Made by a program: the position numbers and the translations under genes. Under the pieces are notes generated by a model, which was not told the DNA's origin, made no database searches, and was given only the letters and a program-made list of their open reading frames with translations. A DNA stretch of 64,000 nt, from positions 1,364,001-1,428,000 of the forward strand of contig NC_011832.1 of the NCBI RefSeq assembly GCF_000021965.1, written 5' to 3'. The stretch comes from Methanosphaerula palustris E1-9c. Its GTDB lineage: Archaea; Halobacteriota; Methanomicrobia; Methanomicrobiales; Methanospirillaceae. Below are positions 6,245 through 55,196 of this stretch, piece by piece. Every line of letters starts with the position of its first letter. Positions within the stretch are counted from its first letter, which is position 1.

Positions 6245-8413
6245 ATGAAGGCGGGCGAGACCGATCTCTTCACCCTGTTCAACGGTACCAAGCAGTTCAT
6301 CATCCCCATCTACCAGCGGAACTACCGCTGGGAGCTGCCGAACTGTGAGGAACTCTGGAACGACATCGTACGGGCGACCACAGACCCGACGAGGGCCGGC
6401 CACTTTCTTGGGTCCATCGTCTATATCAACAACAGCAAGGTATCTCTCACCACCTGGATCCCACAGTTCCTGGTCATCGACGGCCAGCAGCGCCTGACCA
6501 CCATCTCCCTCTTCATCCTCGCCCTCGTCCGTGCCCTCCAGGTGCAGGACCCAAACGCCACCACCCAGCAGCTGATCAGTGAGTTCCTCCTGAATGAACA
6601 CTATGAAGGAGATCTCCATAACAAACTGGTCCTCACACGGATAGACTTTGAGACCTACCATGCCCTCCTCAACAACCGCGACCTCCCCCGGAATGCTTCT
6701 CCCCGCATCGTCGAGAATTACCGCTTCTTCGAAGACAGGATCCGGCAATCCCCCTTCTCTCCGCTTGAACTCTACGATGGCATCCGCCACCTCTTCATCG
6801 TCGAGATCGCCCTCGACCCCGATCACGATAATCCCCAGCGGATCTTCGAGAGCCTCAACTCCACCGGCCTCGACCTCTCCCAGACCGATCAGATCCGGAA
6901 CTTCGTCCTGATGGACCAGGACCCCCATGAGCAGAAGGTACTCTACGAGGATTATTGGTACCCGATGGAACTCCTCTTCGGCAAAGATAACCCCGAGGAA
7001 CTCTTCGACCGGTTCATGCGGGACTACCTGACGGTCCACCGCGACGGCAGAATTCCAAAGATGGGCGAGGTGTTCAGGGAGTTCAAGACTTATGTTCGGA
7101 CACAGGGCGAGTCATCAGTCCACGACCTCGTCATCGATATCCACCGGTTTGCCAGATATTTCGTCTGTATGGCCTGCGGAGAGGAGGAGGATCCGGCCAT
7201 CGCCGCCGCGTTCAATGACCTGAACTTCCTGAAGGTCGACGTGGCCTACCCGTTCCTCCTCCAGGTCTACCACGACTATCGGACCGGACAGATCACCAGG
7301 GACGAACTGGTCGAGGTCGTCCGGCTCGCCGAGAGTTATGTCTTCCGCCGGGCTATCTGCGGGATTCCGACGAACTCCATGAACAAAACCTTCGCGGCCC
7401 TCGGTAAGGAGATCCGGCGAGACCACTATAGAGAGAGTGTGAAGGTCGCCCTCTTCATGCTCGACTCCTACCGCCGGTTCCCCGACGATGCCGAGTTCAT
7501 GCGGGAGATTGAAAGGAAGGATGTCTACAACTCCCGCATATGCAGTTATCTCCTGACGAAACTTGAGAACCACGGGACCAAGGAGCCGATCGCGGCTGCC
7601 AACTACACGGTCGAGCATATCATGCCCCAGAACCCGAGACTCTCCGAAGCATGGCAGCGGGAGCTCGGTGACGACTGGCAGCAGGTCCACCAGACCTATC
7701 TCCACTCCCTCGGCAACCTGACCCTGACCGGTTACAACTCCGAGCTCAGCGATCGGCCGTTCGCCGAGAAACGGGACATGGAAGGTGGCCTCGGCCGCAG
7801 TCCACTCAGGCTCAGCGCCGGCCTCGGGGAGGTTGCCACCTGGAACGAGCAGGAGATTCTGAACCGGGCCGAGAGATTAGCCCTGCTGGCGGCCAGGGTC
7901 TGGCCGGCTCCGGATCCTCTCGTCAAACCTGAAAAATCACAGGGTGAGGACTCATCGAATGGAGGCCCTCTCAAACAGCGGTGGACAGAAGAGCAGTTTA
8001 TGCCCGTTCTCGAGGGGCGGGCAGGGGCTGAGGCCGTCGAGGTCGCCCGGTCGATCCTGGACTGGGGGGTTCGTCATACAACACATATCTGGTGGGGGGA
8101 GGGGAAGAAAGACGGCTCGTTTGCCCCGATCTTCAACTGGAAAGGGGAGAGTTACTATCCGGTCCTTGTATGGACCAGGGGAGTACTGGTCATTCAATTC
8201 CAGTGGCTGCAGAATCGGCCGCCCTTTGATGCACCTGAGAAACGGAAAGAGTTGCTGGACCGCCTGAACGCCATCCCCGGGATCGCAATCCCCGAGGATT
8301 CACTCATCTACCGGCCCGCACTTCCTCTCACAAAGTTCCTTCCTGCGAAGACACGTGAGGAATTTTTCACTGTCCTCGACTGGGTGATCAGCGAGGTGAA
8401 GGAGAATGTATGA
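6245..8413 (+). CDS. DUF262/DUF1524 (GmrSD-like) protein with extra C-terminal domain
   Basis: The 722-residue protein has an N-terminal DUF262 domain with the PIYQRNYRW motif (about 21-29) and the DGQQR nucleotide-handling motif at 79-83, then a DUF1524 HNH-type nuclease domain (about 450-530; EHIMPQN and LGNLTLTGYN supply the His and Asn residues). This pair of domains is known from GmrSD, BrxU and SspE, which cut or nick phage DNA by sensing modification. Residues about 585-722 form an added domain (ARSILDWGV, WWGEGKKDGSF, IQFQWL) that is repeated at the end of the next gene. Its ATG overlaps the stop of a possible 41-codon upstream frame (GCATGA). A phage-defence role is inferred; the DNA target is unknown. 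Confidence 0.85.
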   Translation: MKAGETDLFTLFNGTKQFIIPIYQRNYRWELPNCEELWNDIVRATTDPTRAGHFLGSIVYINNSKVSLTTWIPQFLVIDGQQRLTTISLFILALVRALQVQDPNATTQQLISEFLLNEHYEGDLHNKLVLTRIDFETYHALLNNRDLPRNASPRIVENYRFFEDRIRQSPFSPLELYDGIRHLFIVEIALDPDHDNPQRIFESLNSTGLDLSQTDQIRNFVLMDQDPHEQKVLYEDYWYPMELLFGKDNPEELFDRFMRDYLTVHRDGRIPKMGEVFREFKTYVRTQGESSVHDLVIDIHRFARYFVCMACGEEEDPAIAAAFNDLNFLKVDVAYPFLLQVYHDYRTGQITRDELVEVVRLAESYVFRRAICGIPTNSMNKTFAALGKEIRRDHYRESVKVALFMLDSYRRFPDDAEFMREIERKDVYNSRICSYLLTKLENHGTKEPIAAANYTVEHIMPQNPRLSEAWQRELGDDWQQVHQTYLHSLGNLTLTGYNSELSDRPFAEKRDMEGGLGRSPLRLSAGLGEVATWNEQEILNRAERLALLAARVWPAPDPLVKPEKSQGEDSSNGGPLKQRWTEEQFMPVLEGRAGAEAVEVARSILDWGVRHTTHIWWGEGKKDGSFAPIFNWKGESYYPVLVWTRGVLVIQFQWLQNRPPFDAPEKRKELLDRLNAIPGIAIPEDSLIYRPALPLTKFLPAKTREEFFTVLDWVISEVKENV

Positions 8414-8497
8414 TCGAACCATCACCCTGTATCGTTCCCTGCGGAAAGCAGATGATCTGGAGGAACTAGATAGTGTGATGTTAATCTGAGGAGACCG

Positions 8498-9634
8498 ATG
8501 TCACGTCCAATTTTTGTACTGAACGACCAGGGTTCGCTAGTCCCGATCTTCGAGAGAGAGTACGAGTCGGAGGATATCTTTCAGCAGATGCTCGCGAAAT
8601 TTCCGGAGCTCCTGCTCACTGGCGACGACCGGACACCGTATTCTGGACTGCTCCTCCTCACCCGGGAACAGGAAGTGCCGATCGAGACCGGAGGGAGCAG
8701 GGTCTACTCCCTCGACCATCTCTTCGTCGACCAGAACGGGGTTCCGACGCTCGTCGAGGTGAAGCGTCGATCCGACACCCGGAACCGGCGGGAGATCGTG
8801 GCGCAGATGCTTGACTACGCCTCGAACGGCCTGGCGTGCTGGAACGTTGAGGACCTCCGCCGGAACTTCGAACGGACCTGCAGGGAGATCGAAAAAGAGC
8901 CGGCCGGTGTGCTTGCGGAGTTCCTCGGCGACGGTGGAGATGCGGAGGGTTTCTGGATGCAGATCGAGGAGAATATTCGCGATGAACGGATCCGGATGGT
9001 CTTTGTCGCGGACGAGATCTCGGTCGAGCTCCGGCGCATCGTCGCCTTCCTGAACCGGCAGATGCGGTCGTCCGAGATGCTGGCGATCGAGGTCCGGCAA
9101 TTCGTCGGCGAGGGGGTCCAAGCGTTCGTCCCGGATGTGATCGTCAGACCGGCGGCGTCGATGGGCGGGCGTTCATCGAGTGCGGATACCATGCGACAGG
9201 CGTGGACGGAGGACCGGTTCATGACTGTGCTCGATGAACGGGCCGGCGCTGAGGCTGTCGGGGTCGCCCGATCGATCCTCGACTGGGGTGTCGGGCATGC
9301 GACCCGGTTCTGGTGGGGCGAAGGGAAGAAGGACGGCTCGTTTGGACCGGTCTTCTGTTGGAAGGGGACGGACTACTACCCGGTCTTCGTATGGAGCACC
9401 GGCGTCGGAAAGATCCAGTTCCAGTGGCTGAAACTTCGGCCGCCGTTTGATTCAATCGAGAGACGGAGAGAACTGCTGAACCGTTTGAACGAAATTCCCG
9501 GGATCGCACTCCCCGAAGACGCACTCGGCGGCCGGCCATCCTTCCCTCTCAAAGCGCTCGTGCCTGCGAAGGCACGGAAGAGTTTCCTGGCCGTCCTCGA
9601 CTGGGTGGTCGACGAGGTGAAAAAGGAAGCGTGA
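8498..9634 (+). CDS. PD-(D/E)XK nuclease-like protein sharing its tail with the preceding DUF262 protein
   Basis: The 378-residue protein starts at an ATG preceded by GAGGAG. Residues about 60-115 carry a restriction-nuclease core: Asp73 (SLDHLFVDQNG), Glu87 and Lys89 (TLVEVKRR), followed by a QMLDYASNG helix, the layout of NucS/DUF91-type and other archaeal PD-(D/E)XK enzymes. Residues about 240-378 are roughly two-thirds identical by eye to the last 140 residues of the preceding protein. The two genes are 84 bases apart and co-directional, so they probably act together, with the shared tail as a common recognition or docking domain. The substrate is unknown; a defence role is inferred. Confidence 0.75.
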   Translation: MSRPIFVLNDQGSLVPIFEREYESEDIFQQMLAKFPELLLTGDDRTPYSGLLLLTREQEVPIETGGSRVYSLDHLFVDQNGVPTLVEVKRRSDTRNRREIVAQMLDYASNGLACWNVEDLRRNFERTCREIEKEPAGVLAEFLGDGGDAEGFWMQIEENIRDERIRMVFVADEISVELRRIVAFLNRQMRSSEMLAIEVRQFVGEGVQAFVPDVIVRPAASMGGRSSSADTMRQAWTEDRFMTVLDERAGAEAVGVARSILDWGVGHATRFWWGEGKKDGSFGPVFCWKGTDYYPVFVWSTGVGKIQFQWLKLRPPFDSIERRRELLNRLNEIPGIALPEDALGGRPSFPLKALVPAKARKSFLAVLDWVVDEVKKEA

Positions 9635-41360: not shown

Positions 41361-41425
41361 TGGAAGTTTAATAATTTAAAAAATCTAAAAAAATTTAACT
41401 TCCAAATATATATTTACAACTTCCA
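41361..41425 (+). promoter_or_regulatory. dndB promoter with AACTTCCA operator-like repeats
   Basis: TGGAAGTT (41361-41368) and AACTTCCA (41397-41404) form a perfect inverted repeat around an A/T-only core, and a third AACTTCCA lies at 41418-41425, 12 bases before the dndB ATG. The TATA-like AAATATATATTTAC (41404-41416) sits between the last two and about 28 bases upstream of the ATG, so the transcript is probably leaderless. A protein bound here would cover the TATA box and start site; DndB itself is a candidate, since DndB represses dnd genes in Salmonella. Confidence 0.65.
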
Positions 41426-41437
41426 CCAATCATATTT

Positions 41438-42580
41438 ATGGTATCGTCGTTTCTCAAGGAAGTGAATGCTCTCGATTCATTCACCTATAATTTTCCTGCG
41501 ATACGGGGAATCCAGGCTGGCCGAGAATATTATATCTCAATGTGTCCGCTGAAATTAATCCCCAAAATATTCATCTTCGATGAATCCACACTTCCAGCGC
41601 AATTGCGGGCACAGCGGACGCTTAACAAGGCAAGAATTCCTGATATTGCACAATATCTTGTCGATAATCCCAAAGACTATGTCTTTTCTGCCATCTCTGC
41701 TTCGATCAGTGGCGCTCCAGTACAGTTTATCCCGGCCGGCGAGAATGGCATGGAGACAAAGATCGGGGCCATTATCATACCAATGGATGCCCAATTCATC
41801 ATCAATGACGGGCAGCACCGGCGCGCTGCAATCGAAGCTGCACTCATTGAGCGGCCAGAACTAGCTAATGAAACAATTGCAGTTGTTTTTTTTATCGATA
41901 CCGGACTCAAACGCAGCCAACAGATATTTTCTGATCTCAACCGGCACGCGGTTCGTCCAACAAAATCGATCAGTATTCTGTATGATTATCGGGATCCATT
42001 TGCACGTTTTGTGATGGACCTTGCTGCCACACATCCCTTATTCAAAGGGTTTACCGAACTTGAAAAAACGACCATCTCGAATAGATCCATCAAAATGTTC
42101 ACCCTTTCAAGTCTTTATCAGGGAACACAGAGTCTACTCAATAAAAAGAAAAAAAATAAACATCTTTCTACTGAAGATGAAAAAATAGCACGGGAATTCT
42201 GGGAAGAAGTTTCAAAAAATATCCCCGAATGGGATCTATTAATAAAACATAAGGTTTCGAGCAGTGAACTTAGGACAGAATTTGTTCATGCACATGGTCT
42301 TGCAATCCACGCATTAGGAATAATGGGGCAAGCACTCATCAAACAACACCCAGAAGATTGGAAACAGCAACTTGAACAATTACAGAAGATAGACTGGTTA
42401 CGTTCTAATGAGCAGGTATGGGAAGGCCGGGCAATGAATAATGGGAGAATTTCAAAAGCCCAAATGAACCTTACTCTTACCGTAAATTATCTCAAACAGA
42501 TGATGAATCTCCCCCTAACCAATGAGGAAGAGAGAGTGGAGAAGAGATTTCTTAAGCAGACCCACGGAGGTATACGATGA
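41438..42580 (+). CDS. dndB: DndB, DGQHR-domain regulator of DNA phosphorothioation
   Basis: The 380-residue protein carries the diagnostic DGQHR motif at 124-128 (IINDGQHRRAAIE) within the DndB/DGQHR fold, and FFIDTGLKRSQQIFSDLNRHA, also conserved in the family. DndB is not needed for sulfur insertion but lowers modification frequency and represses transcription. The start is set by a TATA box about 28 bases upstream. The stop overlaps dndC by four bases (ATGA). Most described archaeal dnd loci are dndCDEA; presence of a leading dndB here is worth noting. Confidence 0.88.
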   Translation: MVSSFLKEVNALDSFTYNFPAIRGIQAGREYYISMCPLKLIPKIFIFDESTLPAQLRAQRTLNKARIPDIAQYLVDNPKDYVFSAISASISGAPVQFIPAGENGMETKIGAIIIPMDAQFIINDGQHRRAAIEAALIERPELANETIAVVFFIDTGLKRSQQIFSDLNRHAVRPTKSISILYDYRDPFARFVMDLAATHPLFKGFTELEKTTISNRSIKMFTLSSLYQGTQSLLNKKKKNKHLSTEDEKIAREFWEEVSKNIPEWDLLIKHKVSSSELRTEFVHAHGLAIHALGIMGQALIKQHPEDWKQQLEQLQKIDWLRSNEQVWEGRAMNNGRISKAQMNLTLTVNYLKQMMNLPLTNEEERVEKRFLKQTHGGIR

Positions 42581-44037
42581 GCGCCCAGCAGACTCTTGAT
42601 GGAAAAGCAATTTCTGTCTTTGATAAACATGGCCTCGATGCAATTCATCATGAGATCCAGGAAGTGTACTTGAGTGATAACCGCCCATGGGTTATTGGAT
42701 ATAGCGGTGGAAAGGATTCAACAACCACACTCCAACTTGTCTGGTATGCTATCGCTGAATTACCAGAAGAGAAACGATCTAAACATGTCTTTGTTATATC
42801 TTCAGATACCCTTGTTGAAACACCAGTGATTGTTGATTATATCACGAGCACTCAAGAAAAAATCAACAGAACAGCGGCAGAATCTAAAATGCCATTTACG
42901 GCAATTAAATTGAAGCCGCGTATCGTGGACTCCTTCTGGGTGAATCTAATTGGAAAAGGATATCCAGCACCAAGTACGCAGTTCCGGTGGTGTACTGAAC
43001 GACTGAAGATCCGGACTGCTGACCGATTTATTCTGGAAAGTGTCACCAAGTACGGCGAAGTTGTGATGGTTCTTGGGGTGCGAAAAGGAGAGAGTTCAAC
43101 CCGGGATCAGGTCATGGATCAGTACAAAATCCAGGGCTCAAAACTCTCTCATCACTCCAGGTTTGCGCAGTCGTATGTCTATACTCCCATCGAGGAGTTC
43201 TCTGTTGATGATGTCTGGACATACCTTCTCCAGAAGCCGTCACCATGGGGAAATAACAATCGTGATCTTCTTGCACTCTATAAGAATGCACAGGATGGTG
43301 AGTGCCCGCTGGTGGTGGATAAGGACACGACACCTTGTGGAAACAGCCGGTTTGGGTGTTGGGTCTGTACGGTTGTTGCAAAAGATCGTAGCATGACGGC
43401 TCTCATTGAAAATGGTGAGGACTGGTTAGAGCCGCTCCTTGAATTTAGGAATGAACTTGCTGATACACAGATTCCTGAAAAAAAACACCTATACCGGGAA
43501 TACAGAAGGATGAATGGGAAAGTGAAGGTGATGGAACGAGCGGATGGTTTGCACATTATTCGCGGGCCATACACCCTGGATTATTCGAAATATCAATTAA
43601 GAAAACTACTTGAAGCGCAGGTCAATGTCAGGAAAAATGGTCCATATCCTAATATATCTCTGATATTACCGGAAGAATTGTATGAAATTCGTCGCATCTG
43701 GCAGACCCAGCGTAGTGACTGGGATGACTCAGTTGCCCGTATTCATAAGGAAGTCATGGGAGAAGATCTTGGTTGGGTCAAGGATGATCTTGGAGCATTC
43801 TCTCAATCTGAGAATGAACTGCTTAAAAAGATCTGTAATGATCATAAAACTCCTCTCCGGCTTGTGACTAAATTACTCGATGTCGAACAACAGATGCAGG
43901 GAATGACCCGAAGATCTTCTATTTATAACCGGATAAATGAGGTTTTATCTGAAGAGTGGCGGAGTGAAGAGGAGATCAAGAACGATATGATAAAACCAGA
44001 TGCTGTTGATTCACGAAGACAGATCCGACATATGTGA
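42577..44037 (+). CDS. dndC: DndC, PAPS-reductase-like sulfurtransferase
   Basis: This 486-residue protein has the ATP pyrophosphatase PP-loop YSGGKDSTT (42-50) and Cys residues suited to a 4Fe-4S cluster: Cys139 (FRWCTERL), Cys243, and the group CGNSRFGCWVC (254, 261, 264). DndC activates the DNA backbone or carries sulfur from DndA so that a non-bridging oxygen is replaced by sulfur in an Rp linkage. Cytoplasmic. Coupled by ATGA to dndB and adjacent to dndD. All key residues are present, so the modification system appears functional. Confidence 0.95.
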   Translation: MSAQQTLDGKAISVFDKHGLDAIHHEIQEVYLSDNRPWVIGYSGGKDSTTTLQLVWYAIAELPEEKRSKHVFVISSDTLVETPVIVDYITSTQEKINRTAAESKMPFTAIKLKPRIVDSFWVNLIGKGYPAPSTQFRWCTERLKIRTADRFILESVTKYGEVVMVLGVRKGESSTRDQVMDQYKIQGSKLSHHSRFAQSYVYTPIEEFSVDDVWTYLLQKPSPWGNNNRDLLALYKNAQDGECPLVVDKDTTPCGNSRFGCWVCTVVAKDRSMTALIENGEDWLEPLLEFRNELADTQIPEKKHLYREYRRMNGKVKVMERADGLHIIRGPYTLDYSKYQLRKLLEAQVNVRKNGPYPNISLILPEELYEIRRIWQTQRSDWDDSVARIHKEVMGEDLGWVKDDLGAFSQSENELLKKICNDHKTPLRLVTKLLDVEQQMQGMTRRSSIYNRINEVLSEEWRSEEEIKNDMIKPDAVDSRRQIRHM

Positions 44038-44046
44038 GTGTGGAAG

Positions 44047-46080
44047 ATGCTCCTAAAATCACTTACTCTCGAAAATATCAGGATCTTTAAAGGAGTGAAC
44101 ACGCTTGATTTCACTCCGGTCCACAGTTCAAAAGAGCAAAAGTCGATCATTCTCATAGGTGGTAAAAATGGTGCAGGAAAGACGACCATGTTTGAATCGA
44201 TTCTGCTCTGCCTCTATGGTCAGAACTCTCCGGATGGCCGTATGGGGAAGAAGAAATATGAAAAATATATTGCACAGATGACGGCACGGAACAAAAAAAC
44301 TGAAGATCCCTATAATCCTGCCATCGATGTGGTTTTTGAGTTTTCACATTCTGGAACAACTCACTCTTATTCTGTCCGGAGAGAGTGGATCACTCATCCT
44401 CAATTTTCTGAGACACTCACCGTCAAACGGGATGGAGAGATACTTTCAGATATGGAGGTAGATCAATGGCAGGACCTGTTGAACGAACTGATTCCTCCGA
44501 GATTCGCTCGTCTCTTTTTGTTTGACGGGGAAAAAATTCAGAATCTTGTTGAAGACAATACGGATAATCTGTACCTTCGGGATTCATTTAAATCCCTGCT
44601 TGGTCTCGATATTGTCGAGCGCTTAAAAGCAGATCTTGGGATCTATCTCACCCGTCATCTTAAGGTCAAAGAGGTCCACCATATTACGCAAAAACTTGAC
44701 GAACTCGAAACATCAGGTAAAGATATTGATACAAAAAAAGATCATTACCTCCAGGACCGAGCACAGGTGCAGAGCCGTTATGATCAGATCTCTTCCGAGA
44801 TTGAGCGGCAGGAACAGATCGTTGCCAGCGAGGGCGGAAGCTTCGCCCGGAAACGTGAAGAACTCAAAAACCAGAAGAATCAACTGGATCATCAGATTAC
44901 CACGATCGAAGGGGATATACGAGAACTCTGTGCTGGTCTGTTCCCCTTTGCTATCATCCCTAAATATTGTAATCTGCTCAAACAGCATCTGATTGAGGAA
45001 GACACCATTCAGGCACGGAAACGCTCGGAGGATCTTATTCGGTCCAATGTCGACGAACTCAACAGGATCCTCAAATCCCCAGCCTTTTGGTCTGATCTAT
45101 CCATATCATCCTCACAAAAAGAGAGAGTTCGGACAAAACTCTCCACCCTTCTCGATGAAAAATTCCTGATGGGAAACAAAATCGACAGATCAATCCTGAT
45201 TCATCATCTCTCCCAGTATGAATATAACCGGCTATTGCAATGGATTGATGATTCGATCACCAACGTTCCCAAAAAAATGAATGACCTCTCCCTGCAACTT
45301 GAGAACCTGACCTCAAAGCGCCAGAAAGTTGCTGAGATGATCAATAAAGCTCCTTCTGATGATGTTATTGCTCCGTTGATTCAGAAACTCAACGAACTGA
45401 GCAAACATCTCGGAGAGTTATCAGAGAAGCTGCGGGTGGCTGATGAGAAGATCCATGAGTTCGATTCCCAGTTAAAAGAAATTGAGAGGCAAAGATTGAA
45501 ACTGGATGAAGAACTCCAGGGAGTCAAGTGCGGGTCCAAGAAGATGCAACTCGCTCAGCAGGTTACCCTCATCCTCAATGAATACATGAAAGAACTCCAG
45601 CGCCAGAAGGTCAGCCAACTCAGCGATAATATTCTCTCATGTTTCACCCGGTTGATCAGGAAAGACGATTATGTCAAAGATATCCTGATTGATGAAAATT
45701 ATGCAATTACCCTCTATGAACCGGATGGGCATGCAATCCCTAAAGAACTTCTCTCTGCCGGCGAAAAAGAGATCTTTGCGGTTTCTCTTCTCTGGGGGCT
45801 CACATTGACGTCAGGACGACAGCTTCCCTTTATCATCGATACGCCATTAGGACGATTGGATAGCGAACATCGAGGAAACCTGGTGATGGATTTCTTCCAG
45901 CATGCCGGGGATCAGATGATTATCTTCTCTACCGATACCGAGATTGACAAGGATTATTTCCGCACTCTGCAGCCCTACATTGCCCGGGCATATCATCTGA
46001 ATTACTCGAAAGAGGAGCGCCAAACCACTATCTCTCCGGGATATTTCTGGCAGAGCGAGCCTGTGGAGTTGGAATCATGA
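44047..46080 (+). CDS. dndD: DndD, SMC/RecF-like ATPase of DNA phosphorothioation
   Basis: ATG at 44047 gives MLLKSLTLENIRIF, the usual DndD start; a GTG at 44038 directly after the dndC stop is an alternative. The 677-residue protein has Walker A GGKNGAGKTT (38-47), two long coiled-coil arms (about 190-560), ABC signature LSAGEKEIF and Walker B FIIDTPLGRLD. DndD is thought to open or nick DNA to admit the sulfur-transfer machinery. It belongs to the SMC-like family but lacks a clear CxxC hook, unlike the related ATPase at 53205. The dndE ATG overlaps its stop. Confidence 0.95.
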   Translation: MLLKSLTLENIRIFKGVNTLDFTPVHSSKEQKSIILIGGKNGAGKTTMFESILLCLYGQNSPDGRMGKKKYEKYIAQMTARNKKTEDPYNPAIDVVFEFSHSGTTHSYSVRREWITHPQFSETLTVKRDGEILSDMEVDQWQDLLNELIPPRFARLFLFDGEKIQNLVEDNTDNLYLRDSFKSLLGLDIVERLKADLGIYLTRHLKVKEVHHITQKLDELETSGKDIDTKKDHYLQDRAQVQSRYDQISSEIERQEQIVASEGGSFARKREELKNQKNQLDHQITTIEGDIRELCAGLFPFAIIPKYCNLLKQHLIEEDTIQARKRSEDLIRSNVDELNRILKSPAFWSDLSISSSQKERVRTKLSTLLDEKFLMGNKIDRSILIHHLSQYEYNRLLQWIDDSITNVPKKMNDLSLQLENLTSKRQKVAEMINKAPSDDVIAPLIQKLNELSKHLGELSEKLRVADEKIHEFDSQLKEIERQRLKLDEELQGVKCGSKKMQLAQQVTLILNEYMKELQRQKVSQLSDNILSCFTRLIRKDDYVKDILIDENYAITLYEPDGHAIPKELLSAGEKEIFAVSLLWGLTLTSGRQLPFIIDTPLGRLDSEHRGNLVMDFFQHAGDQMIIFSTDTEIDKDYFRTLQPYIARAYHLNYSKEERQTTISPGYFWQSEPVELES

Positions 46081-46493
46081 TCTTTAATCGGATTCGTATC
46101 AGTGAGAAGGCAACTTACCGGCTCAATCAATTGAAGGGCCGAACACAATTGACTCCCAATATTCTCTCACGGGTTGCTATCTGTTATTCCCTGAATGATC
46201 CCACCATCCCGAACCCTGCGGAATATGACGAGAAGGGTCAGGAGATAAATCGGTTCACGCTTACCGGGGAGTGGGATACCTTCTTTGTCGCTCTCATCAA
46301 AGAGCGGTGCATACATGACGGTCTTGACCCGGAGACGGACCTATACGATCAACTCCGTGCCCACCTGAATCGGGGAGTATTCGGCATCTTCCCTCAGGTC
46401 AAGGATCTGGGAGATTTCCAGATCCTGTTGAAACACCAGGCTGATGGGATCAAGTCCGGTATGTTATCCGAGGAGCGGAATCATGGAAATTAA
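46077..46493 (+). CDS. dndE: DndE, nicked-DNA-binding protein of the phosphorothioation complex
   Basis: The 138-residue basic-helical protein matches DndE: NRIRISEKATYRLNQLKGRTQLTPNIL in pieces (ISEKATYRLNQL, GRTQLTPNILSRVA), then FTLTGEWDTFF and AHLNRGV. DndE forms a tetramer that binds nicked double-stranded DNA. It overlaps dndD by four bases and dndA by 11 bases, so the complex subunits are made together. It is a little longer than many bacterial DndE proteins (about 110-130 residues). Confidence 0.93.
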   Translation: MIFNRIRISEKATYRLNQLKGRTQLTPNILSRVAICYSLNDPTIPNPAEYDEKGQEINRFTLTGEWDTFFVALIKERCIHDGLDPETDLYDQLRAHLNRGVFGIFPQVKDLGDFQILLKHQADGIKSGMLSEERNHGN

Positions 46494-47646
46494 ACGCCCG
46501 ATATACATGGATTCACACGCAACTACCCCTGTCGACCCTCGCGTGTTCGAAGCGATGCTCCCCTATTTCTCCGAGATCTTCGGGAATGCCGGCAGTATCG
46601 ATCATAACTATGGGGCGGTGGCTGCTGATGCAGTGAAGAAAGCCCGGGAACAGTGTGCCCATATCCTGAACGCTCAGTCCGAGGAGATCATTTTCACGAG
46701 CGGGGCGACCGAGTCCGATAACATCGCTATTCTTGGTGTTGCCGAGCAGTACGCTGCTAAGGGCGATCATATCATCACCTGTGTTACCGAGCACAAGGCC
46801 GTGCTTGATACCTGCAAGCATCTCCAGATGGCCGGCAAATCTGTGACGTATTTACCAGTTGACCATTATGGGCTTGTCGACCCCGGCCAGGTTGAAGACG
46901 CCATCACCGAGAAGACTGTATTGATCTCCATCATGGCGGCGAACAACGAGATCGGGACGATTGCACCCATCAAAGAGATCGGGGAGATTGCTCACAAACA
47001 CGGCGTGCTCTTCCATACCGATGCAGCGCAGGCCGTCGGCCATATCCCGATGGATGCTAAGGAGATGAACATCGATCTGCTGTCCTTCTCCGGTCATAAG
47101 ATCTATGGGCCGAAGGGGATCGGCGGTTTGTATGTCCGGGGGAGCAAGCCCCGTGTGAAATTATCGCCGATTGTCTTTGGTGGCGGGCAGGAGAAGGGGA
47201 TTCGCTCGGGGACGCTGAATGTAACGGGTATCGTTGGGCTCGGAGAGGCGCTCGCAATTGCTAGGAAGGAGATGGGCAAGGAAGAAAAGCGGTTCCGTCA
47301 GTGGACAATGCAGATGTTCGATGCGTTCAAAGAAGCGTATCCATCGGTGATGTTGAATGGGCATCCAACCCAGCGGCTTGCTCACAACCTGAATGTCTGT
47401 TTCCCTGGCATCGAGAGCAAGGCATTGATTCATTTATTGAGGGACGATGTATCGATATCTGCTGGCTCTGCCTGCACGACCACGAGCGTTGAGCCATCGC
47501 ATGTGTTACTTGCGATTGGACGGACAGTCGAGGAGTCCCACTCGGCGGTGCGATTTGGATTGGGGAGAGGGAATTCGGAGAAGGAAGTGGGGTTGGGGAT
47601 AAAAAAGGTATACGATTATTTGAAACAATTAGAAAAATTAAAATGA
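46483..47646 (+). CDS. dndA: DndA, cysteine desulfurase
   Basis: From the ATG at 46483 (inside the dndE end) the protein has 387 residues and the fold-type I PLP enzyme motifs: HATTPVDPR, TSGATESDN, His104 (VTEHKAV), the PLP-binding Lys206 (SFSGHKIYGPKG) and the catalytic Cys331 (SAGSACTTTS). It takes sulfur from cysteine as a persulfide and passes it to DndC. Position after dndE (order B-C-D-E-A) matches archaeal clusters, whereas bacteria put dndA first and divergent. It ends four bases from the convergent DUF262 gene. Confidence 0.93.
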   Translation: MEIKRPIYMDSHATTPVDPRVFEAMLPYFSEIFGNAGSIDHNYGAVAADAVKKAREQCAHILNAQSEEIIFTSGATESDNIAILGVAEQYAAKGDHIITCVTEHKAVLDTCKHLQMAGKSVTYLPVDHYGLVDPGQVEDAITEKTVLISIMAANNEIGTIAPIKEIGEIAHKHGVLFHTDAAQAVGHIPMDAKEMNIDLLSFSGHKIYGPKGIGGLYVRGSKPRVKLSPIVFGGGQEKGIRSGTLNVTGIVGLGEALAIARKEMGKEEKRFRQWTMQMFDAFKEAYPSVMLNGHPTQRLAHNLNVCFPGIESKALIHLLRDDVSISAGSACTTTSVEPSHVLLAIGRTVEESHSAVRFGLGRGNSEKEVGLGIKKVYDYLKQLEKLK

Positions 47647-47650
47647 TTTA

Positions 47651-49453
47651 TTAATTTAATGTTCTTAGTTCAGCGTCATTAAATTTGAAAATTTCCAACG
47701 TTTCAGCAACAAGTGACTGAGATCGTTCTTCAATTTGTTCGGGTGTCCAAACAGATTCAGAAAAGACTTTTTCATTTAAATATAAACCATTATTATAGCC
47801 AATTCTGTTATTTTGTCCATCCACTTTAGTTCGCTTTTCTTCAAATAGATCTGTAGATAAAACGCTATTATATGCTGTTATTGTTAAATTCCCGATTTTA
47901 TGGATATATTTTTCGTGTAAATTTTTAAATTTGGGTAAATCTCCTCTCGTAAACATCTCTACCCATTTTGTATTAGGCTTCTCATTTTGGGGTAAAATAT
48001 GTTCAATAGTCCAATTATATTTTTTTTGCTTCTTTGCCCACAAATTTTTCCAATTTTCTCGAGTAAAATGGGTCTCTTCAATTTTACAGAGAATAAATCT
48101 TGCGACATCCTTATTTTCAGAATATATATTTCCTTTAATTTTTTCTCTGAACGTATTGATTGATGATCCATCATATCTTGATAAAGTCAATAATTCGTTG
48201 ACAATATAGTCAAAACAAATATGTTCTTTGTTATCTTCACATTTTTTTATTAGATCAATGAAAATTTGATCTAAGTCCCGAACTTTTGGGTAATCAATCA
48301 GATGACGTCTTACAAAAAATTTTACCAAAAACGTGATTATATCGCCCTGTAATTCACTTTTATCCTTGAAATTTGAAAATAAATACAATAAGAAAGAATA
48401 CGAGGGTATTCCACTTATATGATTCAAATCAATAATACCTTGTTTTATCGATTCATCTAATTCAGAATATTCAGGAGCTATAAATTTTTTATAAACGACT
48501 GATTTTTCAATCAAATCATAAAAAACAAAATTGACATCATTATCAATTAATTTTTCATAATGAGTAATTAAATTAGTTTTTGTTGCTTTTGTAGATTCAA
48601 ATATTTCTGATTTATATTTGAAAGCATTATAATAATGAATCAAAAACTTTTCTTGTAATTTATAATCATCTATATTTTCGATAAGTTTCTCCCAATTTTT
48701 GAAGGCAGAATCTTCATCCAGTATTAATTTATCGATTAATTCAGAGAACATTTTTGTTTTAATCAAGTCTGTTGCTGATAATGGCTCACCTCTATTATTA
48801 AGACTTTCAAATAGAAGGAATGCATCTGAATTACTACCTACTTCAATGGAAATTAATTTTCCAGTAAAAACTGTATCTAATATTTGTCGGATATTTGTAA
48901 ATTCGCAATCATTCAACTTATCTTTGAAAAATTGAAATGCAGAATAAAGTCTCCTAGTCTTAAATCGAGTTTGGCTTTGATTTTGAGATTCCCAAAGTCC
49001 AATAAGATTCATTATTTCACAATAATCATCATTATTTTGTTTCGTGAGCGAAAGTTCAAGCCTTAACTTTTCTGATTTATCAATTTTTAGAACCTTCTCA
49101 AGATTGACAAGATAATAATCATAAAATTTTTTCTCCTTTTCTGGGATGCTTTCCTTATTGATATTATTTAACCTTTCAAAAATTGCAGCATATAATAATG
49201 ACAAGGTAGTTATCCGCTGCTGGCCGTCAATAATTTGAAGATTTGGATTTCGACTGTTTCTTTCTTTATTGATGAGAATAATCGATCCTAAAAAGTGTCT
49301 CTCGTTTTGAGTTAAATCTGAATAGAAATCTTCCCAGTTTTCTTTTTTCCAAATATAATGTCGCTGATATTTAGGAATAACATATCTTACATTTTCGTTT
49401 TCCGTGAAAAGATTTAGTAAGTCAACTTCAGTTATAGTGTAATCAGATGCCAT
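47651..49453 (-). CDS. DUF262/DUF1524 protein inside the dnd island
   Basis: The 600-residue protein has VIPKYQRHYIW (25-35), DGQQRITTLS starting at Asp76, and a C-terminal HNH-like domain with WTIEHILPQN and IGNLTITAYN (about 505-565). These are the DUF262 NTPase and DUF1524 nuclease of GmrSD, BrxU and SspE; SspE reads phosphorothioate marks in the related Ssp system. It is very AT-rich, points toward dndA, and lies between the modification and restriction operons. A role as a sulfur-sensing nuclease is inferred from neighbours and family. It has no added C-terminal domain like the gene at 6245. Confidence 0.85.
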   Translation of the reverse strand: MASDYTITEVDLLNLFTENENVRYVIPKYQRHYIWKKENWEDFYSDLTQNERHFLGSIILINKERNSRNPNLQIIDGQQRITTLSLLYAAIFERLNNINKESIPEKEKKFYDYYLVNLEKVLKIDKSEKLRLELSLTKQNNDDYCEIMNLIGLWESQNQSQTRFKTRRLYSAFQFFKDKLNDCEFTNIRQILDTVFTGKLISIEVGSNSDAFLLFESLNNRGEPLSATDLIKTKMFSELIDKLILDEDSAFKNWEKLIENIDDYKLQEKFLIHYYNAFKYKSEIFESTKATKTNLITHYEKLIDNDVNFVFYDLIEKSVVYKKFIAPEYSELDESIKQGIIDLNHISGIPSYSFLLYLFSNFKDKSELQGDIITFLVKFFVRRHLIDYPKVRDLDQIFIDLIKKCEDNKEHICFDYIVNELLTLSRYDGSSINTFREKIKGNIYSENKDVARFILCKIEETHFTRENWKNLWAKKQKKYNWTIEHILPQNEKPNTKWVEMFTRGDLPKFKNLHEKYIHKIGNLTITAYNSVLSTDLFEEKRTKVDGQNNRIGYNNGLYLNEKVFSESVWTPEQIEERSQSLVAETLEIFKFNDAELRTLN

Positions 49454-49742
49454 GTATATAAAAATTTTAACAGATAATATTTAGGTCTGTTTAATTTATC
49501 TCATTACTGGCCCAAAACAATTTAAAAATGCATTGATATTTTAAGTTCTATTAAAATTGTCAGTTTTCACCCCAGACAATGTAACTAATCTTTACTTGGG
49601 GGCAAATATATTGTGAAGCGTTTCAACAGGCTATTTTATAAAATCTGAATATTTCGAACTCGAATCAACACCTTTTTATTCAATACGCATTTTATTAAGA
49701 ACTACGATAATTAACGCCAATAACCCTGAGGAGACCGACGAA
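49454..49742 (+). promoter_or_regulatory. Divergent promoter region between the DUF262 gene and the Pbe-like operon
   Basis: This very AT-rich 289-base region drives both directions. TAAATATTAT elements lie about 28-35 bases before the DUF262 ATG on the minus strand. On the plus strand CCCTGAGGAGACC gives the first operon gene a strong ribosome site. Several TTTAAAAA and TTTTATAAAA blocks could be TATA boxes but none can be singled out. No AACTTCCA element of the dndB type is seen. Confidence 0.5.
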
Positions 49743-50867
49743 ATGTCAGAGTGTAACCCAGAAATTGATGAGCTTATCGACCTGATACTCTCCAATCCCT
49801 TTTTGAAAAAAACCGGGGACGAAATTAGCGCCCGCGCCCTCATGAAGTGGATCAACCATCACTGGCGTTGCGACCCCCTGGAAAAGAAAGATGAAAGCAA
49901 GATCCTGGAAACTATAAAAAACCTGCATTATGATGGCGCTATCTCATACAAAACGATTGATAACCGTGTCCTGTTGATTGCTGAAGATCCTTTTTTTAAA
50001 TTACAAATAAATAGAAAAAAATTGAAATCGGGTGAAATTCAAATTCTTCAAATTGTTAATAATTGTAATACTCCAAACGAAGAATCACCCATTACTGAAG
50101 AGAAACCATCATTCGTAGATGAATATCAGAATAAACACAGTTTCGAATATTACGATGTTCTGATTCAAAATTTGAAAAAATACGAGGGATCCAACAAAAA
50201 AATACTGATGAATTGTCCAATCTTCTTCAAACTTCTTTGTGATATTCTCAACGATAAATTCACTGACTGGCATACTAAAATGATGATCAGTTCGGCGATT
50301 GCCTATTTCGTATTAGAAAAGGACGTTATTCCTGATCAAGAAGAAGATGGATACATCGATGATTTATTTATCGTCAGTTCTGTCCTTAAAGAAATTAAAG
50401 AAAGTTCCCCGGAATTGATTGATGAGAATTGGCTTTATGAAGAGGATATTTTTGCAACCATCGACGATGTCTATCTTCAGACATCTGAAATCCTTGGGGA
50501 CCTTACCTATGATGTTTTAAGAAAGGTAGGTTTGCATAAATTCAATTCGCTCAATCTAGAAGAATATTCTGGTAGTTACCCTCAAAAACTATCTAGAATA
50601 GCATCTGAAAAACGAGAGTTATTAGGAATCGTTGTTTTTCTGCTCAATAAACTACATGATAAAAAAATGAAAATAACCACGGTCGAGCAGATTAAGAATA
50701 TTCTCCAGAAATGTGGAGAGTCAGATGAGATCAACAGATTGATTGAATTATCAAAAATTAATCATAAATACTATGTTGGAATGAGAAAAGATGACGAGGA
50801 AGATTTTGAAGACATCCTTGAACGTCGATTGAAAGAAGCAAGATTGAATGCGCTTCTAGGGAAATAG
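49743..50867 (+). CDS. YkvA-domain (DUF1232) protein, first gene of the Pbe-like operon
   Basis: The 374-residue protein has a winged-helix-like N terminus (about 1-85), a linker, and a YkvA/DUF1232 core (about 160-230: KMMISSAIAYFVLEKDVIPD and YIDDLFIVSSVLKEI), then a helical C terminus. DUF1232 usually occurs in small membrane-associated proteins of unknown role; its use here is recurrent in sulfur-linked restriction clusters as far as I recall, and the order suggests the PbeA position of the archaeal PbeABCD module. That letter is an inference. The gene has an SD (GAGGAG) and starts the operon. Confidence 0.75.
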   Translation: MSECNPEIDELIDLILSNPFLKKTGDEISARALMKWINHHWRCDPLEKKDESKILETIKNLHYDGAISYKTIDNRVLLIAEDPFFKLQINRKKLKSGEIQILQIVNNCNTPNEESPITEEKPSFVDEYQNKHSFEYYDVLIQNLKKYEGSNKKILMNCPIFFKLLCDILNDKFTDWHTKMMISSAIAYFVLEKDVIPDQEEDGYIDDLFIVSSVLKEIKESSPELIDENWLYEEDIFATIDDVYLQTSEILGDLTYDVLRKVGLHKFNSLNLEEYSGSYPQKLSRIASEKRELLGIVVFLLNKLHDKKMKITTVEQIKNILQKCGESDEINRLIELSKINHKYYVGMRKDDEEDFEDILERRLKEARLNALLGK

Positions 50868-50877
50868 GGAGGTTGGC

Positions 50878-53001
50878 ATGTCTTTTCAGAATCTCAAATT
50901 GAAACACTCCTACTCTTCGGAAAAAGATAACCTGGTCGACGATTTTTACATCCCCGTATTAAATGAAGCACGGATATACCGGAGAGTCACAGGATATTTT
51001 TCCTCAAGTTCGCTCTTTATTGCAGCCCGGGGTTTTTCAAAATTTATTAAAAAGGGAGGTCATTTTCAATTCATCCTCAATGTCCAGTTATCGGATGAAG
51101 ATTATGAACAGATTGAAATGGGAATAAAATCTCCTGAAGGAATTATTCAGAGCAAATTTCTGTTAGACCTATCGAATCTCGAAGACGAATGTAAAAAAAA
51201 CCATGCTAAGGTGCTCGGTTGGCTTATTTCCAATAATCAGATGGAGATTAAAGTAGGATTTATCGAGAAAAAAGTAGTTGGGCACGCAATACTCCACCAG
51301 AAAATTGGAATCCTTGAAGATTATGAAAAAAATATCGTCACTTTCGTCGGATCGAATAACGAGAGTAAATCCGGCTGGTTATATAATTCTGAGAAATTCA
51401 AAGTTTTTTTTAATTGGGAGGAGAATTATCAGGATTCTATCAATGAGGATATTGAAGAATTTGATGATCTCTGGAATAATAGGGCTAGAAAAACTCGGGT
51501 CATTCCATTCCCTGAAGCAGTAAAGCAGGATCTCATCAATGTGTACAAAAACGGATTCTATTCCATCGAAGAGCTCCTTATGGAAGTTGAGGAGGTATGT
51601 GAGTCGGGTCTGGGATATAGAACGAAAAAAGATCCATCAATAGTTCTTCGTCATTACCAGCATGAAGCAATCGATGCCTGGTTTGCTAATAACTGTCAGG
51701 GAATTCTAGAGATGGCAACTGGCACTGGAAAGACATACACTGCTATTGGTGCATTACAGAAATTATTGAAGCAAGAGAAAAAACTGATAACAATTATTTG
51801 TACCCCGTTTCTTCATCTTACAACACAATGGGAACAGAATATCCATCAGATGGGTGTTGACCTTCCTATTATCTATGCGAGCAGTATGGATCCTAAGTGG
51901 AAGGATAAATGTACTGATAAAATCCTTGATAACCGCCTGGGAAAATTGCCGCAATTTATTATCCTTGCAACCCATGATACAATATCCTCCAAAAAATTTA
52001 TTGAAATGATGGAGGATCTCAAATCACCGGCTCTTCTCATTGCAGATGAAGTTCACGGAATGGGATCGGTGAAAAGGATCAATGGCCTGATCGATAAATA
52101 TCGTTATCGCCTAGGATTAAGTGCAACACCCCATCGCTATTTTGATGAGTTTGGAACGAATAAATTGATGGAATATTTCGACAAAACCGTGTACGAATTT
52201 AATCTTCACCAGGCAATCAATGAGATAAATCCTACTACAAATGAGTCTTATCTCGTCCCTTATGATTACCATCTTCTCTTTGCAGAGTTAAATTCGGAGG
52301 AGATGGACAATTATGCTGACATTAGCAGGCAAATTGCCATATCTTTTTCAAAATCTCATCGAACAAGAGAAGAAGAGATTATCCTGGAGATGAAATTACG
52401 GGAGCGACAGGATATATTAAAAAATGCCATCGAAAAGTACCCACAATTTATAGATTTGATCAATCAATTGAACAACGAGCGAGAAATATCTCATACTTTG
52501 ATCTATTGCTCTCCTCAGCAGATCGAGCCGGTACAGGATATTATCCGAAACTCAGAAAATATAGTTCAACATAAATTTACCTGCGGTGAGGATGCAATCA
52601 GACATCTGGAAAAATATTCTGGTATGACAGAACGGGAATACCTCCTCGACAATTTTGATAAAGGAAATTATGACGTTCTTGTTGCGATAAAATGTCTCGA
52701 TGAAGGCGTGGATGTTCCTTCTACAAAAAATGCAATCTTAATGTGCAGTTCAGGAAATCCAAAAGAGTACATTCAGAGACGCGGACGCGTTCTCCGGAGA
52801 TTTCCTGGTAAGGGTAAAGCCGTAATTTATGATTTTTTTTCCGTCCCCAACCTCAACGATTCCCGTTTGAATCCGGAGACTGAACAGAAGATTTTTGACT
52901 CTCAAATGAGCCGACTTGAAGAATTTGCAAAGGATGCCATGAATGAATCAGAGGTATTTCGTCAGATATTTCAAGAGAAGAAAAAATATGGTGTATTCTG
53001 A
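50878..53001 (+). CDS. PLD-domain and SF2 helicase protein of the Pbe-like operon
   Basis: This 707-residue protein joins a phospholipase-D-type domain (about 1-200, His140 and Lys142 in LHQKIGI, then TFVGSNNESKSGW) to a superfamily 2 helicase: Walker A MATGTGKT (279-286), DEVH (390-393), LSATPHR, and QRRGRVLRRF. Such fusions are common in restriction systems, where the helicase moves on DNA and the PLD part cuts or binds it. The second PLD HxK is not evident, so it may dimerise. SD GGGAGGT; the 64-residue gene follows after 8 bases. Confidence 0.88.
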   Translation: MSFQNLKLKHSYSSEKDNLVDDFYIPVLNEARIYRRVTGYFSSSSLFIAARGFSKFIKKGGHFQFILNVQLSDEDYEQIEMGIKSPEGIIQSKFLLDLSNLEDECKKNHAKVLGWLISNNQMEIKVGFIEKKVVGHAILHQKIGILEDYEKNIVTFVGSNNESKSGWLYNSEKFKVFFNWEENYQDSINEDIEEFDDLWNNRARKTRVIPFPEAVKQDLINVYKNGFYSIEELLMEVEEVCESGLGYRTKKDPSIVLRHYQHEAIDAWFANNCQGILEMATGTGKTYTAIGALQKLLKQEKKLITIICTPFLHLTTQWEQNIHQMGVDLPIIYASSMDPKWKDKCTDKILDNRLGKLPQFIILATHDTISSKKFIEMMEDLKSPALLIADEVHGMGSVKRINGLIDKYRYRLGLSATPHRYFDEFGTNKLMEYFDKTVYEFNLHQAINEINPTTNESYLVPYDYHLLFAELNSEEMDNYADISRQIAISFSKSHRTREEEIILEMKLRERQDILKNAIEKYPQFIDLINQLNNEREISHTLIYCSPQQIEPVQDIIRNSENIVQHKFTCGEDAIRHLEKYSGMTEREYLLDNFDKGNYDVLVAIKCLDEGVDVPSTKNAILMCSSGNPKEYIQRRGRVLRRFPGKGKAVIYDFFSVPNLNDSRLNPETEQKIFDSQMSRLEEFAKDAMNESEVFRQIFQEKKKYGVF

Positions 53002-53009
53002 GGTAGATT

Positions 53010-53204
53010 ATGAAAGAGGGTTCTGAATTTAACAAATTGATTTTAGAGACTATCGACGAACATTGCGATGATCGGAAGGTAAAAAGACTGATTCGAGAAT
53101 CACTGAGATATGAACTTGATATCTGGAACAGGCACATTCGGTCATCGGAAATTGAAGATGAATATGAACAGATGGTTAATGATGTTCTGAAGGGGAGAAA
53201 TTGA
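53010..53204 (+). CDS. 64-residue protein of the Pbe-like operon
   Basis: The ATG is preceded by GAGGT (53000-53004) overlapping the helicase stop, and the stop is adjacent to the ATG of the next gene, so the frame is tightly embedded. The product (MKEGSEFNKLILETIDEHCD...) is acidic and predicted helical, without known motif; the DEHCDDRKVKRLIRESLRYE segment could be a coiled or four-helix adaptor. It may serve as a linker between helicase and ATPase. Not recognised as a named family. Confidence 0.7.
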   Translation: MKEGSEFNKLILETIDEHCDDRKVKRLIRESLRYELDIWNRHIRSSEIEDEYEQMVNDVLKGRN

Positions 53205-55196
53205 ATGAAGTATGCGATTTCTTCCATTAGTATCAGTAATTATCGGCAATACTATGGAATACAAACTTTGGATATCAAAAATGATAAAATAAAAAATGTG
53301 TCACTCATTCTTGGAAAAAATGGTGCTGGTAAATCGAATTTATTGAATGCGATAACCTGGTGCCTGTATGGAATTGAGACCCATAAAAGTAAGGATATTT
53401 CTGACTCTACTGGAATGCCTATTATCAATACATCAGCATTAAAACATCTTCCCAAAGATCAAAATATCACTGCTGAAGTGGTTATCCACCTTAAAACAGA
53501 TAACGGTCCATGGATGATTAAGAGAACTCTTGGAGGTGGAAAAAGTGCTCTTGGAGAATATCATTTTGACGAAGCAAGTAAATTATCGGTAACTCACCAG
53601 GTGAATGGTCAAGATAAAATCGACATCGGTGATGATACACAGATTTTAATTAATAATCTCTTGCCAGAAGCCTTAAAGAATTTCTTCTTTATCGATGGCG
53701 AACAACTCCGGGATTTTTTTAAGGTTAGTACTCCTGAAAAAATCGCAGAAGCTATCGATGTGGTTTCTCAACTTGAACTCGTTTATAAAGCAGCAAATCA
53801 TTTGGAAAAGTTGGAGAAAAATATAAGGAAAAGTGTCTCAGCAACAACTCCTGAAATTGGGAAAGTTCAACATCAAATCGAACTGGCACAAGAAAAATTA
53901 GACAATCAGAAAGACACAATAGAAAGAATAGAGAAAGAGAAGAAATTAGATCAGGAAGAAATTATTAAGGTAAAGGATTTTCTTAAGAACCATAGTAGTT
54001 CGGTAATATCTACTCTAGAAAAAGAACGACAGTCTCTAGAAACTGATATACAAAAACTAAAAGAACAAATCGGGAAAAAAGAATATCAACGTAATTCTTA
54101 TCTTGTAGAGATCGCCCCATTTATTTATTTAAAAAAGGAGATTGAGCAAACCTATAAAATAATTGAGCAAAAAGTGGATAAAGGTGAATTACCTCCACGG
54201 ATAAAAAAGACCTTTATAAAAGAACTTCTCGAAAAAGGGTATTGTATCTGCGGAAATGAACTTGTGGGCAATGCGAGAGAAACACTCGAAGAATATAGTA
54301 ATAAAATTACTCTCTCCGAATTAAGTGAAATCTCGATTGTTGGAAAAACGACGATTGAAGAAATATTAACTAGTATTATAGATTTTCCTGCAACAATCGA
54401 TGCGTTTAACGATGAAATTCAGGATTTTAAAGATCAACTTGAGAAGAAGGAACGACGGCGTGAATTAATCTCTGACGAAATAAAAGACCATGATATCGCT
54501 GAGATTCATCGTTATGAAGACAGAAGAGAAGAACTCACAGATCTGATTGCAAAAAATAATCAACTCCTAATCGGCAATAATGCTGAAAAGAATGAATGTG
54601 ATGCGATATTAACTGAATTAAAGGAACAGGAAGCCCGAGAACTTTCAAAAGACAAGAAACACGCAGAATTAAATGAAAAATTATCACTTGTTCAGAATAC
54701 ATTAAAAATACTCGGAACTACTGAAAAAATAATCAAAACAAAAATCAGAAAACAGGTTGAATTAAACCTCAACAAGAATTTTAACACGTTAATTCGTAAA
54801 AAAACAGCATTTAGTTCAATTACAATCGATGAAAATTATGTTGTTAAAGTGCATCATGTCGACGGTTACAATGTCATCAATGATTTATCTGCAGGTGAAT
54901 ATCTGATTCTCGGTTTATCATTTATGAGTGCACTTATGACAATCTCCGGGTTCCAAGCACCAGTTATTATCGATACGCCTCTCGGGAAAATCGATAATGA
55001 ACATAGAGAGTATATAACAACAGAACTTCCAAAATTTTTAGAAGGTACGCAATTAATTTTTCTTGTCACCCCTACTGAATATGATAACAATGTTAAGGCG
55101 AACCTGAATAGGTATCTCCTGAAAGAGAATTTCTACCAGATAATTGAAAATAGTAATCAAACTGAGTCGACAGTGAGGAGGTACGATGGCAACTAA
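53205..55196 (+). CDS. DndD-like SMC/RecF-type ATPase of the Pbe-like operon
   Basis: The 663-residue protein has Walker A GKNGAGKSN (37-45), long coiled coils, a central CxC zinc-hook-like turn (GYCICGNEL, about 345), signature LSAGEYLILG and Walker B VIIDTPLGKIDNEHRE. It is clearly related to DndD (FIIDTPLGRLDSEHRG) but is a distinct paralogue with a hook. It would recognise DNA ends or bind DNA with the helicase. Its end overlaps the last gene by 11 bases, the same overlap as between dndE and dndA. Confidence 0.88.
   Translation: MKYAISSISISNYRQYYGIQTLDIKNDKIKNVSLILGKNGAGKSNLLNAITWCLYGIETHKSKDISDSTGMPIINTSALKHLPKDQNITAEVVIHLKTDNGPWMIKRTLGGGKSALGEYHFDEASKLSVTHQVNGQDKIDIGDDTQILINNLLPEALKNFFFIDGEQLRDFFKVSTPEKIAEAIDVVSQLELVYKAANHLEKLEKNIRKSVSATTPEIGKVQHQIELAQEKLDNQKDTIERIEKEKKLDQEEIIKVKDFLKNHSSSVISTLEKERQSLETDIQKLKEQIGKKEYQRNSYLVEIAPFIYLKKEIEQTYKIIEQKVDKGELPPRIKKTFIKELLEKGYCICGNELVGNARETLEEYSNKITLSELSEISIVGKTTIEEILTSIIDFPATIDAFNDEIQDFKDQLEKKERRRELISDEIKDHDIAEIHRYEDRREELTDLIAKNNQLLIGNNAEKNECDAILTELKEQEARELSKDKKHAELNEKLSLVQNTLKILGTTEKIIKTKIRKQVELNLNKNFNTLIRKKTAFSSITIDENYVVKVHHVDGYNVINDLSAGEYLILGLSFMSALMTISGFQAPVIIDTPLGKIDNEHREYITTELPKFLEGTQLIFLVTPTEYDNNVKANLNRYLLKENFYQIIENSNQTESTVRRYDGN

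What the first reader, a model, noticed from the sequence alone, without database searches (positions are those of the whole stretch)
6245..9634. Two-gene system: DUF262/DUF1524 protein and PD-(D/E)XK protein sharing the same 140-residue tail
Seen: the last about 140 residues of both proteins are roughly two-thirds identical, including ARSILDWGV, WWGEGKKDGSF and IQFQWL, and even the DNA just after both stops (TGATCGAACC) is alike. Inference: segmental duplication attached one recognition or docking domain to two different nuclease cores, suggesting a defence pair that assembles on the same target or partner. I know of no named system with this layout.
Basis: partly seen in the sequence, partly recalled or inferred. 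Interest (0 to 1): 0.8.

Follow-up and report, generated by a model that had tools for sequence, protein, structure and literature searches.

The report
Two neighbouring nucleases sharing one tail
In a methane-producing archaeon, a defence-type DNA-cutting protein carries the same tail as the unrelated DNA-cutter encoded next door, apparently because the tail was copied from one gene to the other; each protein is of a known stand-alone kind, so this looks like a one-off swap of a targeting part rather than a conserved two-part system.

Summary
P0001 (6245-8413, GmrSD-type DUF262+DUF1524) and P0002 (8498-9634, NucS-like PD-(D/E)XK) share a C-terminal domain: 63% identical over 165 residues, 74% over 447 bp, including 10 bp at and past the stops. 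The domain has no Pfam, NCBIfam or PHROGs match. Elsewhere it belongs to the P0002 type: 23 other intact carriers (archaea, bacteria, two plasmids, a viral contig) pair it with the NucS-like domain. Among 25 copies in 232 genomes of the class, only P0001 is on a DUF262 protein, and no other carrier examined has a DUF262 gene within up to 10 kb. P0001's core relatives mostly end in DUF5655, more distant ones in DUF4268; P0002-type nuclease domains also occur with DUF4268. Both nuclease kinds thus use interchangeable tails, and here P0001 took on its neighbour's. The AlphaFold tail model is confident (pLDDT 93); fold matches are weak but include double-wing DNA-binding proteins. Best reading: two independent single-gene restriction-type nucleases that came to share one DNA-targeting domain by local duplication and domain exchange. 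A conserved, co-assembling defence pair is not supported.

The parts
6245..8413 (+). P0001, GmrSD-type protein (DUF262 + DUF1524) with C-terminal shared tail, 722 aa
6272..6907 (+). DUF262 / GmrSD_N domain (residues 10-221), with DGQQR at 6479-6493
   Evidence: Pfam E 1.6e-35; motif
7478..7882 (+). DUF1524 / GmrSD_C HNH-type nuclease domain (residues 412-546), with HIMPQ from residue 458
   Evidence: Pfam E 9.6e-25; motif
7982..8410 (+). shared tail, copy in P0001 (residues 580-722)
8498..9634 (+). P0002, NucS-like PD-(D/E)XK protein with C-terminal shared tail, 378 aa
8498..9154 (+). NucS-like nuclease domain (residues 1-219), D73 at 8714-8716, E87-V-K89 at 8756-8764
   Evidence: alignment A6, Foldseek to EndoMS/NucS, profile
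9194..9631 (+). shared tail, copy in P0002 (residues 233-378)
8411..8420 (+). TGATCGAACC at the stop of P0001, end of the duplicated segment
9632..9641 (+). TGATCGAACC at the stop of P0002, end of the duplicated segment

Best explanation
Two independent, single-gene restriction-type nucleases of known kinds lie in tandem. P0002 is the native type of carrier of the tail. A copy of the 3' part of a P0002-like gene was joined to the end of a GmrSD-type gene, filling the slot that its relatives fill with DUF5655 or DUF4268 (shown by sequence; the order of events is inferred). Inferred mechanism: the tail is a substrate-recognition domain, most likely binding DNA with a double-wing-like fold. In P0001 the DUF262 NTPase gates the DUF1524 nuclease once foreign or modified DNA is bound; in P0002 the NucS-like active site (D73, E87, K89) cuts. 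Both would act in parallel on the same class of DNA without needing to form a complex.
For: Tail carried by NucS-like proteins in all 23 other intact carriers examined; only P0001 among 25 copies in the class is on DUF262; no DUF262 gene near other carriers. Core relatives of P0001 align only to about residue 556 and end in DUF5655 or DUF4268. NucS-like relatives also end in DUF4268. Motifs of both nucleases intact; dN/dS of the tails about 0.27. Tail model pLDDT 93 with weak matches to DR2400 (DUF419) and the T4 MotA DNA-binding domain; double-wing link from PMC7641849 and PMC6755090. HEC-06 GmrSD-like proteins act alone (PMC11411939). P0002-like genes lie by CRISPR-Cas, hsdS and HmaC genes.
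Against: Fold matches of the tail are not significant (best E about 0.2; MotA E 1.3, probability 0.28, TM 0.41/0.52). The two genes are adjacent, same strand, 84 bp apart, which is also what a co-operating pair would look like. The window neighbours are signalling genes, not a defence island. The core tree does not show P0001 nested among DUF5655 carriers.
Confidence: 0.5

Rival explanations
1. One reading: a true two-gene defence system in which the shared tail docks both nucleases to one target or partner, or to each other, so that they act as a complex.
For: Same strand, 84-bp gap, both tails under constraint. Two-protein GmrSD-type systems exist (TgvAB, PMC11411939).
Against: The pair was found nowhere else; 23 P0002-type carriers occur without a DUF262 neighbour and P0001-like cores without a tail partner.
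Confidence: 0.2
2. The tail on P0001 is an accident: a duplication that fused to the gene and is tolerated, with P0001 working through its DUF262/DUF1524 core alone.
For: The fusion is found in one genome; the 609-aa DUF262/DUF1524 protein in the same window has no such tail; P0001's tail seems to change faster at protein level than P0002's.
Against: The reading frame is open through 143 tail residues with dN/dS about 0.27, well below 1, and conserved tail residues are kept. Relatives nearly always carry some tail.
Confidence: 0.15
3. P0001 is a phosphorothioate-sensing nuclease (SspE/DndI-like) that works with the Dnd cluster in the same window.
For: The window carries DndABCDE, PbeA and PbeC plus its own DUF262/DUF1524 'Orf5' protein. 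P0001 matches the PADLOC 'Orf5' models still more strongly. DndI (9jfl) is its best PDB sequence match.
Against: P0001 lies about 33 kb from the cluster. The cluster is 39% GC against 58-61% for P0001 and P0002, so it looks like a separate arrival. Of four genomes with close P0001 cores only G368 has a strong DndC match. The cluster already has its own Orf5 protein.
Confidence: 0.1

Closest known systems
GmrSD-family type IV restriction enzymes (GmrSD, BrxU/HEC-05, HEC-06, PADLOC 'Orf5')
   Same: P0001 has DUF262 and DUF1524 with the defining motifs; PADLOC Orf5 model E 6e-175 over residues 11-553
   Different: the C-terminal tail; closest relatives carry DUF5655 there
SspE / DndI, phosphorothioate-sensing DUF262/DUF1524 nucleases
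   Same: same two-domain core; best PDB matches by sequence
   Different: not in an operon with dnd or ssp genes; low sequence likeness; extra tail
NucS/EndoMS and Shedu SduA nucleases; PADLOC candidate PDC-S11
   Same: P0002's first 219 residues have the PD-(D/E)XK active site, Foldseek match to EndoMS, PDC-S11 model match at residues 18-246
   Different: P0002 itself has no Pfam match; PDC-S11 likeness stops before the tail
DUF5655 and DUF4268 C-terminal domains
   Same: occupy the same place in GmrSD-type proteins; DUF4268 also occurs on NucS-like nucleases
   Different: no demonstrable sequence homology with the tail
Double-wing DNA-binding domains (T4 MotA C-terminal domain, MmcQ/YjbR DUF419)
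   Same: weak Foldseek matches of the tail; similar make-up of helices and strands
   Different: no significant score and no sequence match

Membership tests
GmrSD family (P0001) | DUF262 with QR, DGQQR and FxxxN motifs | tested here: met
   Pfam GmrSD_N E 1.6e-35; YQR 23, DGQQR 79, FESLN 201
GmrSD family (P0001) | DUF1524 with His-Me/HNH motif | tested here: met
   Pfam GmrSD_C E 9.6e-25; HIMPQ 458, GN 490
GmrSD family (P0001) | NTP-dependent cleavage of modified DNA | not testable with these tools
   needs purified protein
SspE/DndI (P0001) | linked to phosphorothioation genes | tested here: inconclusive
   a Dnd cluster is in the window but about 33 kb away with its own Orf5; most close-core genomes lack a strong DndC
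NucS/EndoMS proper (P0002) | PD-(D/E)XK active site in a NucS-type fold | tested here: met
   D73, E87, K89, Q103 invariant in alignment A6; Foldseek probability 0.97-0.99 to EndoMS, E about 0.007
NucS/EndoMS proper (P0002) | sequence match to the NucS_C family model | tested here: not met
   no Pfam match for P0002; only distant relatives match, so it is called NucS-like, not NucS
PDC-S11 (P0002) | full-length match to the PADLOC model | tested here: not met
   match covers model 18-215 of 358 only, E 3e-11
DUF5655 or DUF4268 (tail) | match to the family profile | tested here: not met
   no Pfam match for 14 tails; hhalign probability 0.5-9.6%
Double-wing DNA-binding fold (tail) | structural match to MotA or MmcQ/YjbR domains | tested here: inconclusive
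   MotA 1kaf probability 0.28, TM 0.41/0.52; DR2400 2a1v probability 0.16
Conserved two-gene system | co-occurrence of both genes in other genomes | tested here: not met

The most novel reading that the evidence does not exclude
Probability: 0.15. Interest if true: 0.7.

Novelty: new variant of a known kind. Interest (0 to 1): 0.42.

Why it matters
What the variable C-terminal domains of GmrSD-family enzymes do is, as far as I could find, not established. Here one such tail sits both on a GmrSD enzyme and on an unrelated nuclease, and DUF4268 is found on both kinds as well. That makes these tails testable as portable targeting modules: swapping them should move target choice between nuclease families. 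The tail is also a compact, confidently modelled domain that the annotation libraries searched here do not contain.

Tried and rejected
Profile comparison of the tail with DUF4268 and DUF5655 gave no support for homology. Pfam, NCBIfam, PHROGs and PDB sequence searches of the tail gave nothing useful. No PDB structure of DUF5655 was found by sequence. The tail was not found in phage records, and a viral-contig scan with a tail alignment found none; a scan with full-length P0002 did find one viral-contig carrier. The age of the duplication is unsettled: the protein tree puts P0001's tail outside P0002+G532 (99/95), but synonymous divergence is lowest between P0001 and P0002 (0.83 against 1.57) and they share a flank that G532 lacks. 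A search for tail homologs of Pfam domains at loose E-values gave only unrelated families. The bacterial promoter and terminator scan was no better than shuffles and is not suited to archaea.

Full report
What is there. Two ORFs lie head to tail on the + strand, 84 bp apart. P0001 (6245-8413, 722 aa) has Pfam GmrSD_N at 10-221 and GmrSD_C at 412-546, with YQR, DGQQR, FxxxN and an HNH-type HIMPQ motif. P0002 (8498-9634, 378 aa) has no Pfam match, but its first 219 residues carry D73, E87-x-K89 and Q103, invariant among relatives, and its AlphaFold model matches EndoMS/NucS (Foldseek probability 0.97-0.99, E about 0.007). Distant relatives of this domain match NucS_C and, more weakly, Shedu SduA_C in Pfam.

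The shared tail. P0001 556-720 and P0002 212-376 are 63% identical (E 1e-72) and nothing else aligns convincingly. The DNA is 74% identical over 447 bp and ends with the same TGATCGAACC at both stops. dN/dS between the copies is about 0.27, so the difference has accumulated under constraint. These are the only two copies in the 2.92-Mb genome.

Who else carries the tail. Of 393 genomes sampled from the phylum 14 have it; of all 232 genomes held for the class 23 have 25 copies. P0001 is the only copy in a reading frame over 700 aa; intact others are about 370-430 aa. In 23 other intact carriers a profile of the NucS-like domain finds that domain upstream of the tail in the same ORF; they include two bacterial plasmids, Defluviicoccus and a viral contig. 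A GmrSD profile finds no DUF262/DUF1524 protein in any of those surroundings (up to 10 kb each side where the contig allows), only in the window. The nearest P0002 ortholog (G532, 75% identical over 378 residues) lies beside cas3 and cas1, with a cas2-like ORF and a repeat array, and no DUF262 gene on its 11.5-kb contig.

What other tails P0001's relatives carry. Relatives align to P0001 up to about residue 556 and stop there. At 46-51% core identity the tail is DUF5655 in eight proteins with Pfam support (L026-L028, L134, L136-L139) and something else in L025. L133 ends early in a DUF5655-like stretch, and L140, at 42%, has a weak DUF5655 match. More distant archaeal relatives carry DUF4268 (L031; L029, L030, L033 by alignment). 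NucS-like relatives of P0002 also carry DUF4268 (L073, L080, L082). So both nuclease kinds use a common set of exchangeable C-terminal domains, and P0001's tail sits where DUF5655 usually sits. The core tree does not resolve whether P0001 lost DUF5655 or never had it. That GmrSD proteins carry extra C-terminal domains, among them DUF4268 and DUF4357, was reported in PMC4619093.

Context. P0001-like genes sit among hsdM, hsdS or hsdR genes in G101, G368 and G332, as GmrSD-like genes often do (PMC11411939). P0002-like genes lie beside a CRISPR-Cas locus (G532), near hsdS (L020), and overlapping an HmaC/DUF499 gene next to a DUF1156 gene (L130). That supports a defence role for each family on its own. 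In the window itself the neighbours are chemotaxis and histidine-kinase genes, read from their sequences.

How it probably works. For P0001, published work on GmrSD, BrxU, SspE and DndI (PMC10952713, PMC9646914, PMC11662687) indicates a DUF262 sensor/NTPase gating a DUF1524 nuclease or nickase; P0001 keeps the motifs, activity is not shown. For P0002, nuclease activity is inferred from the conserved active site. The tail model is confident (pLDDT 93.4, pTM 0.88): two helices, five strands, then further helices. Foldseek gives no significant match, but the weak list contains DR2400 of the DUF419 (MmcQ/YjbR) family and the T4 MotA DNA-binding domain. [quoted passage not shown] DNA targeting is therefore the most likely role, held at modest confidence; docking remains open.

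Timing. The protein tree places P0001's tail outside P0002+G532 (99/95), while synonymous divergence and the shared flank place the two window copies closest. A duplication in this lineage with faster protein change in P0001, or an older one with later gene conversion, both fit.

Limits. The bacterial side was sampled thinly: one scan of genome contigs with narrow patterns and the plasmid collection. DUF262+tail fusions may exist there. Many assemblies are fragmented, so absence of a neighbour is limited by contig ends.

Noticed in passing
window 41399-55193: A DNA phosphorothioation cluster: DndB, DndC, DndD, DndE, DndA, then a DUF262/DUF1524 'Orf5' protein on the - strand (47654-49480), an unidentified ORF, PbeA and PbeC (PADLOC). 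GC is 39% against 53% for the window, so it looks acquired.
   Followed up: partly
L086 9266-10504 (G532 contig 74): The closest P0002 ortholog lies next to cas3, with cas1, a cas2-like ORF and a repeat array on the same 11.5-kb contig.
   Followed up: partly
L130 5997-10303 (G172): A P0002-type gene overlaps the end of an HmaC/DUF499 gene in a locus with a DUF1156 protein, so this nuclease type can be embedded in Hma-like defence loci.
   Followed up: partly
L122 9030-11515 (G131); similar in L011 (G080): A P0002-type gene is followed by a second NucS-like gene with a different C-terminal domain: two related nucleases in tandem with unlike tails.
   Followed up: no
L116 (G457), L121 (G198), L132 (G514): Broken copies of P0002-type genes with stops or only a tail remnant, as expected of genes with fast turnover.
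   Followed up: no
L071-L081 (G140, G253, G223, G228 and others): A second NucS-like family, frequent in the same order, with its own C-terminal domain; the two members scanned (L071, L072) match NucS_C just above its cut-off and nothing in Pfam for the C-terminal part.
   Followed up: no
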